A stretch of DNA of 64,000 nucleotides from positions 1-64,000 of the forward strand of contig NZ_JABAST010000006.1 of the NCBI RefSeq assembly GCF_016107575.1, written 5' to 3'. Origin of the DNA: Psychrobacter faecalis (GTDB taxonomy: Bacteria; Pseudomonadota; Gammaproteobacteria; Pseudomonadales; Moraxellaceae). Below, piece by piece: positions 19,626 through 49,637 of the stretch. The notes beneath the pieces were generated by a model. That model had not been told where the DNA came from, did not search any database, and saw only the letters and a program-made list of their open reading frames with translations. Every line of letters begins with the position of its first letter. The first letter of the stretch is position 1. The position numbers were made by a program, and so were the translations under genes.

Positions 19626-19639
19626 GTTTCACGTGAAAC
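19626..19639. other. parS-like ParB-binding site 1
   Basis: GTTTCACGTGAAAC is a perfect palindrome matching the core of the canonical parS sequence. It lies in the gap between rlmF and mntP, about 10 kb left of oriC. Confidence 0.8.
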
Positions 19640-19641
19640 AA

Positions 19642-19672
19642 AAAAAACCGCTTTGTTTATCAAGGCGGTTTT
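19642..19672. terminator. bidirectional terminator between rlmF and mntP
   Basis: AAACCGC (19645-19651) and GCGGTTT (19665-19671) flank a loop and extend into CTTTG/CAAGG pairing. The plus strand ends in TTTTC, and on the minus strand eight T's follow the stem, serving mntP. Confidence 0.8.
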
Positions 19673-19701
19673 CTTATAAGTAAGAACTTGAGGTTAATAA
19701 A

Positions 19702-20310
19702 CTAGCTAAAGAAAATCACTTTTAAGCCAATGAGTATAAGTACAAATCCGCCAAGCGCTTCCGCCTTATCCTCAAGATACGTACCTGATTTTTTACCCAA
19801 ATAAACACCAAAAACGCTAAAAATAGCAGTAATAATAGCGATAATCAAACAGGCTAGCCACGCATTAAGCGCCAACAAATTCAGCGTAAAGCCAGCTGCC
19901 ATGGCATCAATACTGGTCGCTATCGCAAGGGTAAACATGGTGCGATGATTGATATTTTTCTTTAGGTTGTCATTTACAGAAACTGTCTCACTATTTATAT
20001 GCAGGGCTTTATCTACAACCTCTTCTCCATCTCCAAAAAACACTTCATAAAGCATTTTTCCGCCAAGACCGATAAGGATAAAGCCACCAATCCAAGGTGC
20101 AGCCGCAGCCAACCAGCCTAATAAAGCGGCGCCCAATAAATAACCAATCAACGGCATCACGCCCTGCGCAATGCCAAAATACAAGCCCGCATAAATTGCC
20201 AAATGCAACACATAACGATGATGTTGTTTTTGTGATTTAGCTCCTAACCCAATCGCAACAGCAAACGCATCCATCGCAAGAGCAATAGCAAGTAATATAA
20301 CTTCAATCAT
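19702..20310 (-). CDS. mntP: manganese efflux pump MntP
   Basis: A 202-residue inner-membrane protein with six hydrophobic spans. It carries the family motif ALAMDAFAVAIGLGAK near the N-terminus and its counterpart AIATSIDAMAAGFTL in the second half; these paired aspartates bind manganese in the MntP/YebN family. It exports excess Mn2+. In enterobacteria the gene is controlled by a Mn-sensing riboswitch, but only about 60 bases separate it from the upstream gene here and no such leader is visible. It is bracketed by two perfect parS-like sites. Confidence 0.93.
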   Translation of the reverse strand: MIEVILLAIALAMDAFAVAIGLGAKSQKQHHRYVLHLAIYAGLYFGIAQGVMPLIGYLLGAALLGWLAAAAPWIGGFILIGLGGKMLYEVFFGDGEEVVDKALHINSETVSVNDNLKKNINHRTMFTLAIATSIDAMAAGFTLNLLALNAWLACLIIAIITAIFSVFGVYLGKKSGTYLEDKAEALGGFVLILIGLKVIFFS

Positions 20311-20344
20311 TTTATTCTTCGCTTATTTCTGCTTATTGCCATAA

Positions 20345-20358
20345 GTTTCACGTGAAAC
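20345..20358. other. parS-like ParB-binding site 2
   Basis: GTTTCACGTGAAAC is a perfect core palindrome, 12 bases from the end of the DUF6880 gene and just upstream of the mntP start. It is about 9 kb left of oriC. Confidence 0.8.
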
Positions 20359-47744: not shown

Positions 47745-47850
47745 TTTTATTATTAATCAAAACGCGATTTTAAGAAATCTTTAAACCTGCTGTTTTACTC
47801 ATCGTTTAAGTTGTATTATATCTCCTCATACTTTCCTTTCTCATTCCGCT

Positions 47851-48486
47851 ATGTCTACATCTAAAGCTCTTATCACCGATTCTGTCATCGAAGCTGCGCA
47901 TTGGCTACAACAAGGACAGCTGCTTGCTTATCCAACCGAAAGCGTTTGGGGTATCGGCTGTGACCCCTTTAATCAACAAGCGATACAGCAGCTTTTGGCC
48001 ATCAAGCAACGACCGTTAGAGAAGGGTATGATTGTGGTCACCGATAGTGTCAGTCGACTTAAGATGTTGTTAAATAGTCTAAATGAAGATCAACGCCAGC
48101 AAGTGTTAGTCAGTTGGCGTAACGATACTGATTCCGACGTCAATAGCCAGCAGGCGCATACGTGGTTATTACCGTTATCAGAAAACTTACCCGTTTCTAT
48201 CCCTGCGTGGATTACCGGTTCCCATCATAGTGTGGCGGTGCGGGTGATTGACCATCCTTTGGTGCAGCAGCTGTGCCGTCAAGTGGTGTCCGTCCATAAT
48301 CCCTATGGCTTTGTCGTTTCGACCAGCTGTAACCCGTCCGGTCAGCCGCCTGCTTTAACGCTCTCACAAGCACAGGCTTATTTTTCTGATAGCAATGAGC
48401 AAGTTGGCTATCTAAAGGGCGAGACGCTTGGTTATCAGCTCCCTAGCCAAATCAGCGATGCTCGAACGGGTCAAGTGATTCGTTAG
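47851..48486 (+). CDS. tsaC: threonylcarbamoyl-AMP synthase (TsaC/YrdC-type)
   Basis: Makes threonylcarbamoyl-AMP, the first step of t6A37 tRNA modification. The 211-residue chain matches the short TsaC/YrdC type rather than the two-domain Sua5: GQLLAYPTESVWGIGCDPFNQQ near 26-47 carries the KxxK/SxN-type pocket and KQRPLEKGMIVV near 69 the basic dipeptide. The end VGYLKGETLGYQLPSQISDARTGQVIR follows the family. It is downstream of dprA, a very common neighbour. Confidence 0.9.
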   Translation: MSTSKALITDSVIEAAHWLQQGQLLAYPTESVWGIGCDPFNQQAIQQLLAIKQRPLEKGMIVVTDSVSRLKMLLNSLNEDQRQQVLVSWRNDTDSDVNSQQAHTWLLPLSENLPVSIPAWITGSHHSVAVRVIDHPLVQQLCRQVVSVHNPYGFVVSTSCNPSGQPPALTLSQAQAYFSDSNEQVGYLKGETLGYQLPSQISDARTGQVIR

Positions 48487-48645
48487 TAACCATTTAAAAG
48501 CTAATATTTTTTATATTAGTAGTTCAGTCCTCTATTTATACCCAATCCTACTTTACGCCTTATACCTATAATTCATCTCTTGTTTTTGTAGATGGTTTTT
48601 TGTCACACTGAGAAAAAGGCAAGAAAACTATAAGGATAAAAAGCG

Positions 48646-49608
48646 ATGGATATTCTAATCAGTGGTGGCTCGGGATTCTTAGGTAGCGCGTTTAGTGAAG
48701 CAATCATTAAGCGCTATCAAAAGGATGATAAAAAAGTGCAGATTACGTGGCTGACGCGCGATAGTAAGCAGGCGCATCCTAATGATATTAAAATGATGAC
48801 CTATGATGAGCTGGTGAAGTCAGATAAAAGCTTTGATGTTATTTTGAATCTAGCAGGCGCAGGGATTGCTGATAAACGTTGGAGTGACGCGCGTAAAGAG
48901 CAATTGCTTGCCAGCCGTATCAAACCTACTGAGGCGCTACTGGATTTTATTGCGCGTAGTAATAGCAAACCTAAGCTACTGGTTAGCGGTTCAGCGATTG
49001 GCTGGTATGGTCCTCAAGGTGATAAGTCTTTGACAGAAAGCAGTGGTTTTAACGCTGATTTTTCGCATAAACTCTGTGACGACTGGGAACAGTTGGCGCT
49101 AAAAGCTACCGATTACGGTGTCCCTGTTGCTATCGTACGCACTGGTGTGGTTATCCATCCTAAGGGCGGTATGGTCAGTAAATTATTAACGCCGTTTAAA
49201 ATGGGTGTCGGTGGTCAATTGGGTGACGGTAAGCAAATTATGAGCTGGATCAGTCGTACTGATTGGGTAAGAGCGGTAATATTTATCATTGAGCAACATC
49301 TTAGTAGTCAGAGACAGCAAGTGAATAGTATTGATAATACTCTAACAACAGCAAACGCTACGCCAGCGCTGGTTTATAACTTGACCGCGCCCAACCCTGT
49401 GACCAATCATACTTTTACTAAGATGCTTGGCGCATGGCTACATCGTCCGACATTTTTTACTTTACCAGCATTTTTATTAAAGCTGATGTTTGGTGAGATG
49501 TCGACCTTGTTGATTGATGGGCAAAAGGTGCTGCCACAAGCGCTACTAGGCGCAGGCTTTGAATTTGAACACACAGCTTTAGAGCAAGCGTTGGAGCAGC
49601 AATCGTAA
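48646..49608 (+). CDS. TIGR01777 family epimerase (YfcH-like SDR)
   Basis: An NAD(P)-binding extended SDR of 320 residues. The nucleotide loop ISGGSGFLGSAFSEA (about 4-18) is followed by LNLAGAGIADKRWSDARKEQLLASRI, the signature of this family, and the SGSAIGWYGPQGD segment with its tyrosine. VLPQALLGAGFEFEHTALEQAL is the typical C-terminal tail. Substrate unknown; YfcH and its relatives are poorly characterised. It is preceded by AAGGATAAAAAGCG. Confidence 0.85.
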   Translation: MDILISGGSGFLGSAFSEAIIKRYQKDDKKVQITWLTRDSKQAHPNDIKMMTYDELVKSDKSFDVILNLAGAGIADKRWSDARKEQLLASRIKPTEALLDFIARSNSKPKLLVSGSAIGWYGPQGDKSLTESSGFNADFSHKLCDDWEQLALKATDYGVPVAIVRTGVVIHPKGGMVSKLLTPFKMGVGGQLGDGKQIMSWISRTDWVRAVIFIIEQHLSSQRQQVNSIDNTLTTANATPALVYNLTAPNPVTNHTFTKMLGAWLHRPTFFTLPAFLLKLMFGEMSTLLIDGQKVLPQALLGAGFEFEHTALEQALEQQS

Positions 49609-49621
49609 ACTTTAAAAGATA

Positions 49622-49637
49622 TGTTTCATGTGAAACA
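49622..49637. other. parS-like ParB-binding site 10
   Basis: TGTTTCATGTGAAACA differs by one base from the canonical palindrome. It lies in the gap after the epimerase gene, the most distal site seen, about 20 kb right of oriC. Confidence 0.65.

What the first reader, a model, noticed from the sequence alone, without database searches (positions are those of the whole stretch)
19626..49637. Array of ten parS-like palindromes spread around the origin
Ten sites match TGTTTCACGTGAAACA or its core, perfect or with one base changed: 19626, 20345, 25207, 26026, 34474, 36615, 36642, 37174, 43004, 49622. They straddle the oriC candidate (about 29.5 kb) from 10 kb left to 20 kb right. Five keep the central CACGTG and five have CACATG/CATGTG. 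This is an unusually dense and wide centromere zone for a gammaproteobacterium; the ParA/ParB genes are not in the window. The clear split into two sequence classes could mean two strengths of ParB loading.
Basis: partly seen in the sequence, partly recalled or inferred. Interest (0 to 1): 0.7.

Follow-up and report, generated by a model that had tools for sequence, protein, structure and literature searches.

The report
Centromere sites clasping a DnaA box
This Psychrobacter chromosome carries fifteen copies of a parS-type sequence, ten of them within about 20 kb of its predicted replication origin, on which the segregation protein ParB is predicted to load; two of them have a DnaA-box sequence between them, an arrangement found in 53 of 59 stretches of this genus examined, so copying and sorting of the chromosome are likely linked at that spot.

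Summary
Ten palindromes lie where stated (five starts one base off), against about one expected by chance. They are parS-type sites of Psychrobacter's ParABS system. The zone exceeds the window: the own genome holds 15 intact sites, five on contigs that map to the gyrB side of oriC. In four relatives all 50 sites with at most one mismatch lie in one 61-145 kb zone holding dnaA. Sites in recF, mnmE and ribE are frozen at synonymous positions; these genes and rsmB also carry parS in sister genus g31.

The two classes are not simply two strengths. At one site the central base flips freely (His CAC 40, CAT 38); elsewhere codons fix it; a doubly changed centre is rare (5 of 451). At the ribD-ribE pair, though, CACATG is kept without coding constraint.

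Beyond the finding: (1) that pair encloses a DnaA box inside a conserved DnaA-box cassette, a predicted ParB/DnaA module; (2) g31 genomes that purged the word ACGT have mostly rewritten parS centres (64 TG : 7 CG, against 18 : 83 in the others); (3) parAB lies 61-86% of the way to the terminus. Binding and function are untested.

The parts
19625..19640 (.). parS-type site, CACGTG class, intergenic beside an mntP-like gene
   Evidence: 54 of 54 aligned relatives keep the core with CG centre (the looser mapping lists a few CACATG at or near this place)
20344..20359 (.). parS-type site, CACGTG class, intergenic
   Evidence: 14 of 14 aligned relatives keep the core, CG 12, CA 2
21880..21895 (.). 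decayed parS (TATTTCACATGAAAAA) between gyrB and the next gene
   Evidence: intact sites at this place in some other Psychrobacter
25207..25222 (.). parS-type site inside recF, CACGTG here; class flips between relatives
   Evidence: centres CA 38, CG 23, TG 9 of 70 aligned
26026..26041 (.). parS-type site inside recF, CATGTG class
   Evidence: core kept in 73 of 73 aligned, TG 69, CG 4
27891..29354 (-). dnaA
   Evidence: NCBIfam TIGR00362, 488 bits
29508..29742 (.). oriC candidate: DnaA-box cluster between dnaA and rpmH
   Evidence: five exact DnaA boxes, and the cumulative GC-skew minimum in the same kilobase range; cluster scan; rpmH recognised by eye
34474..34489 (.). parS-type site inside mnmE, CATGTG class fixed by a Cys codon
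   Evidence: (TGT 60 of 60 codons)
36523..36987 (.). ribD-ribE intergenic composite module: DnaA boxes and a parS pair
36555..36563 (+). DnaA box with one mismatch, first of the cassette
36587..36595 (-). DnaA box (exact)
36614..36629 (.). parS-type site, CACATG class, first of the pair
36629..36637 (-). DnaA box (TTATACACA) wedged between the two parS cores
36641..36656 (.). parS-type site, CACATG class, second of the pair, 27 bp from the first
36761..36769 (-). DnaA box (exact)
36820..36828 (+). DnaA box (exact), 59 bp from the previous one; 58-59 bp in 57 of 59 stretches
37173..37188 (.). parS-type site inside ribE, CACGTG class fixed by an Arg codon
43004..43019 (.). parS-type site inside rsmB, CACGTG class
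   Evidence: a site also lies in rsmB of g31 genome G131
49622..49637 (.). parS-type site, CATGTG class, just downstream of the yfcH-family gene

Best explanation
The ten palindromes are parS-type sequences, on which the chromosome's own ParB is predicted to load so that ParA would move the origin region and SMC would be brought to it, and the pair at ribD-ribE likely lets ParB and DnaA compete for one small regulatory module. Shown by sequence: the sites cluster around dnaA, are frozen at synonymous positions, and recur in the same genes of a sister genus; the genome has one ParB-family match, with the parS-type base-reading residues, a ParA-like gene beside it, and an SMC. Shown: the centre loses its CpG on one side but rarely on both, so that nearly always one intact GTTTCAC-type half is kept. 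Shown: at ribD-ribE a DnaA box fills the gap between two parS sites inside a cassette of boxes with largely constant order and spacing. Inferred: ParB loaded there would keep DnaA off the enclosed box, and by spreading off its neighbours, and so tie the start of replication to a segregating origin, much as ParB2 does against RctB in Vibrio cholerae. Untested: all binding.
For: Clustering: of the sites with at most 1 mismatch, 50 of 50 in G057-G060 lie in single zones of 61-145 kb that hold dnaA, and 11 of 11 in G027 within 58 kb (its dnaA was not placed). DNA-level constraint: mean synonymous codon diversity inside the sites is among the lowest of the gene (windows as low, the site's own counted: 25207 2 of 395, 26026 1 of 395, 34474 1 of 485, 37173 2 of 219). 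Same genes across genera: recF, mnmE, ribE (same offset of 185 bases) and rsmB; the mnmE core is at the same residues in 7 of 12 g31 genomes. ParB: TIGR00180 over cut-off, best solved relatives Spo0J/ParB; R173 and G201 of the Caulobacter numbering, the residues that read parS (PMC7383237, passages), are kept (numbering carried over by me). SMC present. Half-site rule: doubly changed centre 5 of 451 against 37.6 expected, Fisher p 7e-17, rows not independent. Module: 59 of 59 stretches have 2-3 parS; an exact TTATNCACA box lies between the first two in 53 of 59; 48 of 59 have both the 27-28 bp spacing and the exact box. The last two exact boxes are 58-59 bp apart in 57 of 59. Box density 8.85 per kb against 0.317 elsewhere in the same 58 loci. 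Of 541 parS in 79 loci, 108 have a box within 30 bp, against 607 of 20000 random places (these 108 were not split by place and are probably nearly all the ribD-ribE pair).
Against: No ChIP, footprint or gel shift exists here. In P. aeruginosa parS5 (TGTTCTACATGGAACA), which has the same CA centre plus a second change, binds ParB least of ten sites (PMC4368675, passages), so the variant sites may be weak. The ParB-DnaA link rests on architecture alone. In five of six ACGT-purged g31 genomes DnaA boxes remain at ribD-ribE (two in G108, four in the others) with no parS core, so ParB is not needed for whatever the boxes do there. parAB far from oriC breaks the usual pattern. Species are related by descent, so counts over loci are not independent.
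Confidence: 0.62

Rival explanations
1. An ordinary, if large, parS array: only segregation and SMC loading; the DnaA boxes near the ribD-ribE pair are a separate DnaA-titration cluster that merely shares the same gap.
For: parS arrays of 20 or more are known (PMC7333895, passages). In G105, G097, G108, G111 and G126 DnaA boxes persist there without a parS core. Among the window's ten sites only this pair has a box near by.
Against: An exact box between the first two parS in 53 of 59 stretches, 48 of them at 27-28 bp, while most of the intergenic region has diverged; parS also lies among the boxes in seven of seven ACGT-keeping g31 genomes looked at.
Confidence: 0.3
2. The CACGTG and CATGTG classes are two affinity classes that grade ParB loading.
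For: CACATG is kept in 51 of 53 first and 44 of 53 second sites of the ribD-ribE pair without codon constraint; 19625 is CG in 54 of 54 aligned. Core changes lower ParB affinity in P. aeruginosa (PMC4368675, passages).
Against: Free flipping at 25207 (CA 38, CG 23, TG 9 of 70; His codon CAC 40, CAT 38). Class fixed by codons at 34474 and 37173. Whole Psychrobacter genomes range from 1 CG: 13 TG (G030) to 14 CG: 4 TG (G138) with the same ParB reading helix.
Confidence: 0.2
3. The palindromes are operator sites of a transcription factor or nucleoid-occlusion (Noc) sites rather than parS.
For: Five of the ten lie outside genes; Noc and ParB are homologous.
Against: The other five lie inside recF, mnmE, ribE and rsmB; NBS has different bases at two positions of each half (PMC7383237, passages), and the genome's only match to the ParB family keeps the parS-reading residues and is far below the Noc cut-off (184 against 315 bits; one match).
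Confidence: 0.03

Closest known systems
Chromosomal parS/ParABS arrays (Bacillus, Streptomyces, Pseudomonas)
   Same: 16-bp palindrome with the TGTTNCACGTGNAACA plan (consensus partly recalled), clustered around oriC, with ParA-like, ParB and SMC genes in the genome
   Different: More and wider spread than the four oriC-proximal sites of P. aeruginosa (PMC4368675, passages), though arrays of 20-23 are known elsewhere (PMC7333895, passages); most sites with perfect T-type arms have lost the central CpG on one side (TG 135, CA 54, CG 34, TA 2); parAB lies far from the origin although par operons are said to lie in the ori domain (PMC7022226, passages)
parS2-B / rctA of Vibrio cholerae chromosome II
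   Same: A parS next to an initiator-binding regulatory site at an origin; ParB there relieves initiator-mediated inhibition (PMC3688505, abstract and passages)
   Different: There the initiator is RctB and the site a 39-mer; here a DnaA box is enclosed by two parS on a main chromosome, and no function has been shown
datA / DARS and DnaA-box clusters (recalled)
   Same: A conserved cluster of DnaA boxes at fixed spacing away from oriC
   Different: Those are not known to me to hold parS; no IHF or Fis site was looked for here
Half-parS binding by P. aeruginosa ParB
   Same: ParB uses the heptamers GTTTCAC and GTTCCAC; nearly every variant site here keeps one such half (PMC7022226, passages)
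   Different: Here the heptamer is still part of a near-palindrome, not alone

Membership tests
Chromosomal parS centromere | 16-bp palindrome matching the parS plan closely | tested here: met
   ten sites with 0-2 mismatches to TGTTTCAYRTGAAACA
Chromosomal parS centromere | Concentrated around oriC, not spread over the chromosome | tested here: met
Chromosomal parS centromere | Genome encodes ParB with parS-reading residues, and ParA | tested here: met
   (ParA: best match ParA_partition, 116 bits, below its cut-off of 180; Walker motif read by eye)
Chromosomal parS centromere | Selected as DNA, not as protein or by chance | tested here: met
   synonymous freezing in three genes; shuffles
Chromosomal parS centromere | par operon in the ori domain | tested here: not met
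   parB 61-86% of the ori-to-ter distance in 8 of 8 genomes. A usual companion feature, not a property of the site
Chromosomal parS centromere | Bound by ParB | not testable with these tools
   needs ChIP or gel shift
Noc-binding sites (NBS) | A and C at the two NBS-specific positions; Noc with Q173/R201 | tested here: not met
   the ten sites have the parS bases G and A there; ParB has R and G at these places; positions from PMC7383237, passages
DnaA-titration / regulatory cluster (datA, DARS type) | Several DnaA boxes at conserved order and spacing outside oriC | tested here: met
DnaA-titration / regulatory cluster (datA, DARS type) | IHF/Fis dependence and effect on DnaA nucleotide state or initiation | not tested
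   no experiment; IHF/Fis sites not scanned
rctA-type parS-initiator coupling | ParB changes initiator occupancy of the neighbouring site | not testable with these tools
   needs binding assays

The most novel reading that the evidence does not exclude
A bacterial centromere can be rewritten by a genome-wide ban on a short word, and can double as a replication switch. In sister genus g31, lineages that purged ACGT replaced the ACGT core of nearly all their parS, by C-to-T or, where the protein forbids that, by a synonymous codon, with ParB's reading helix unchanged. In Psychrobacter a parS pair clasps a DnaA box, so that ParB gates a DnaA reservoir near oriC.
Probability: 0.4. Interest if true: 0.8.

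Novelty: new variant of a known kind. Interest (0 to 1): 0.62.

Why it matters
How bacteria tie the start of replication to segregation is known in detail for only a few species (recalled). A conserved parS-DnaA box-parS module makes that link directly testable in an environmental genus. The ACGT result points to a selective force on centromere sequence that did not appear in the listings of the papers searched here, and offers pairs of relatives with nearly the same ParB and different parS cores, a natural test of which bases ParB needs. The remote parAB operon breaks a rule stated for chromosomal ParABS systems (PMC7022226, passages).

Tried and rejected
ParB specificity change as cause of the class split: the reading helix GKAR(T/A)T(V/I)(S/T)NL(L/M)RLN is shared by TG- and CG-dominant genomes of g1, g28 and g31; rejected for the helix, not for the rest of ParB. 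Positions 183-184 (N plus Q/H/N/A, against L/I plus S/A/G) do separate these genera from the seven other ParBs aligned, but that is one event on the tree; left as a lead.

G102 (g31; no ParB, no parS) looked like a natural knock-out. Its fetched stretch is all N, so it is probably withheld and its zeros mean nothing; dropped.

Methyltransferase behind the ACGT purge: C5 type (PF00145) found in 7 of 15, absent from purged G111, G105 and G126 (one of the 15 is G102). N4/N6 type (PF01555) found in 13 of 14; among the 30 of 40 matches that were given loci no cluster is shared by all purged and absent from kept genomes. The cause of the purge is unknown; avoidance left behind by lost systems is known (PMC4687349, passages).

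ACGT avoidance as cause in Psychrobacter: no; 0.86, 1.00 and 0.92 in three genomes and 0.92 in the window; over 78 loci a weak correlation with class (rho 0.25, p 0.03, kinship not corrected). GC content: rho -0.12, p 0.32 in 72 loci.

Trade-off between arm and centre mismatches is carried by a few orthologous sites and contradicted by 36614; not claimed.

FMN riboswitch or other Rfam family in the window: none at gathering threshold. Promoter-like matches near ribE: 2, shuffles 2.9.

My note had G114 with codon CGG in ribE; one search shows TCC CGT. The report follows.
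Full report
WHAT IS THERE. Ten palindromes close to TGTTTCACGTGAAACA lie between 19625 and 49637 (12 matches with up to 3 mismatches against 1.18 expected, 0 of 100 shuffles as many). The window is the origin region of a Psychrobacter: gyrB, recF, dnaN and dnaA run leftwards; yidC, mnmE, ribD, ribE, fmt, rsmB run rightwards (rpmH recognised by eye). The 79 dnaA loci kept (of 95 found) are all named Psychrobacter. The cumulative GC-skew minimum (1-kb bins) and five exact DnaA boxes lie between dnaA and rpmH at 29.5-31 kb. 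The oriC assignment is thus computed from sequence, not measured.

THE ZONE IS LARGER THAN THE WINDOW. The window is the first 64 kb of a 116-kb contig. The own genome has 18 matches with up to 2 mismatches: 11 in that contig (10 sites and the decayed 21880), 3 on C47, 2 on C11, and 2 that look like chance on C8 and C51. C47 and C11:59905 align to 760-780 kb of complete genome G060 (Psychrobacter sp. WY6), about 52-70 kb from dnaA on the gyrB side. C11:12150 aligns to a G058 stretch whose site is about 123 kb from dnaA. That gives 15 intact sites. The order of contigs is inferred from relatives.

RELATIVES. Sites with at most one mismatch, counted: G057 13, G058 17, G059 9, G060 11; all 50 lie in a single zone of 61-145 kb holding dnaA, reaching 13-23 kb to one side and 48-123 kb to the other. 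In G027 all 11 lie within 58 kb (dnaA not placed). Counts per genome with at most one mismatch run from 8 to 19 in the 37 genomes of the genus, own included. Two other genera of the family, g28 and g31, have similar arrays. Genus g36 (I take it to be Acinetobacter from genome size and number of species, not from any call) has 1-10 sites of the CACGTG class, many with C-type arms, and 0-4 matches to the CATGTG class; G143 is an exception with 1 and 3.

SELECTED AS DNA. In 78 recF, 61 mnmE and 59 ribE orthologues from the 79 named loci (the rest did not reach or aligned too little), the codons inside the sites are among the least variable synonymous stretches of each gene. Sites in recF, mnmE, ribE and rsmB also exist in g31: in ribE at the identical offset of 185 bases, in mnmE at the same residues in 7 of 12 genomes. 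So part of the array is probably older than the split of the genera.

PARTNERS. One ParB-family match in the own genome, 375-aa frame, with a ParA-like gene directly upstream; SMC present. In eight relatives with both genes placed on one contig, parB lies 0.68-1.38 Mb from dnaA, 61-86% of the way to the opposite pole (four Psychrobacter, four g31; contigs treated as circles). A review states that par operons lie in the 20% around oriC (PMC7022226, passages).

THE TWO CLASSES. Over 79 loci, sites with at most one arm mismatch have centres CG 190, TG 155, CA 101, TA 5; independence predicts 37.6 TA. One side of the centre may change, rarely both: one intact half is kept. Site 25207 flips (CA 38, CG 23, TG 9 of 70); its His codon is CAC 40 and CAT 38 while the neighbouring Phe and Lys codons never vary in 78. 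At 26026 a Met codon (68 of 77) sets TG, and His is CAC in 76 of 77, which is the half-site rule again. At 34474 Cys (TGT 60 of 60) sets TG; at 37173 Arg (CGT 58 of 59) sets CG. Against a purely neutral reading, the ribD-ribE pair is CACATG in 51 of 53 first and 44 of 53 second sites although its arms vary and nothing is coded there; two second sites have the doubly changed centre. So class is not a general strength code, but may be one locally.

THE ribD-ribE MODULE. In the window, parS 36614-36629 and parS 36641-36656 enclose the DnaA box 36629-36637. Further boxes lie at 36555 (one mismatch), 36587, 36761 and 36820. Of the 79 named loci, 58 hold both genes; with the window this makes 59. 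Of the 59, 53 have two and 6 three parS there; an exact TTATNCACA box lies between the first two parS in 53; the pair is 27-28 bp apart in 53; both hold in 48. The last two exact boxes are 58-59 bp apart in 57 of 59, and the alignment shows mainly boxes and parS conserved. All 58 loci have 2-6 TTATNCACA boxes there. In 12 of 13 g31 genomes four or more boxes in the same opposed order are found, some with one mismatch; G108 has two. parS lies among them in 7 of 7 ACGT-keeping and 1 of 6 ACGT-purged genomes (exact core only; G089 not looked at). The chance of such a box in a given 13-bp gap is about 3e-4. Inference: ParB on the pair would exclude DnaA from the enclosed box, and spreading would reach the others; in V. 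cholerae ParB2 acts so against RctB (PMC3688505, abstract and passages). The sign of the effect on initiation is not predicted by anything here.

ACGT AND THE CENTRE. In g31 the CG and TG classes are split by lineage. Outside parS, ACGT is at 0.00, 0.00, 0.04, 0.09, 0.19 and 0.33 of expectation in G108, G111, G105, G097, G114 and G126, and at 0.53-0.74 in the other eight sampled (samples of 10-400 kb; G102 dropped as withheld). The first six have 64 TG to 7 CG sites, the eight 18 to 83; rank correlation 0.84, p 0.0002, not corrected for kinship. On the ParB tree the purge needs three changes, at least two forced by well-supported branches; two independent pairs are too few for a test. G089 is an exception (4 TG, 1 CG, ACGT 0.66). 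CpG as such is near normal in two purged genomes and mildly low in one (0.92, 1.00, 0.76). A prediction was written before fetching nine more genomes: in ribE, where C-to-T would turn Arg into Cys, purged genomes should lose ACGT another way. Result (13 genomes, four already seen): purged 0 of 6 have ACGT at the site, all still reading VSRET; three use CGG, one TCC CGT, two have lost the site. Kept: 6 of 7 have GTT TCA CGT GAA ACA; G117 has CAA. In the unseen part, 3 of 3 and 5 of 6 fit. This suggests that the word ACGT, not the protein and not ParB's reading helix, drives the change there. It does not explain Psychrobacter, whose ACGT is near normal.

LITERATURE. Seen as passages found with search terms only: PMC7383237, PMC4368675, PMC7022226, PMC7333895, PMC3688505, PMC4948915, PMC4687349. 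Livny 2007 is not held. No paper whose title or abstract deals with chromosomal parS in Psychrobacter or Moraxella, with parS and ACGT avoidance, or with parS enclosing a DnaA box appeared in the rows listed (listings are capped, abstracts are shown in part and most full texts were not opened); the library holds open-licence papers only, so this is weak evidence of novelty.

VERDICT. The array is parS by the sequence tests made here, large but of a known kind. The new points are the composite parS-DnaA box module, the half-site rule for the centre, the remote parAB, and the ACGT-linked rewriting of parS in a sister genus.

Noticed in passing
L016 (own contig C56:8495-12043); L097-L100, L113-L115, L121: parB lies 61-86% of the ori-to-ter distance away from dnaA in eight relatives, not beside oriC
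   Followed up: yes
L136-L155 (G105), L176-L185 (G114), L226-L235 (G097), L236-L243 (G108, G111): Genomes of g31 nearly or fully lack the tetranucleotide ACGT outside parS (0 against 172 and 0 against 156 expected in 80 kb each of G108 and G111)
   Followed up: partly
L186-L195 (G069): GCGC, GGCC, CGCG, GATC and CCGG are almost absent (0.03-0.10 of expectation in 200 kb), so g31 lineages purge different palindromes
   Followed up: no
window 31097-31396: A third, weak cluster of three DnaA-like boxes (up to one mismatch), just before yidC
   Followed up: no
window 20370-21851: A 493-aa reading frame beside gyrB with no NCBIfam match, between the sites 20344 and 21880
   Followed up: no
ParB alignment, Caulobacter numbering 183-184: Asn at 183 marks the genera with many CATGTG centres; Leu or Ile in the seven other ParBs aligned
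   Followed up: no
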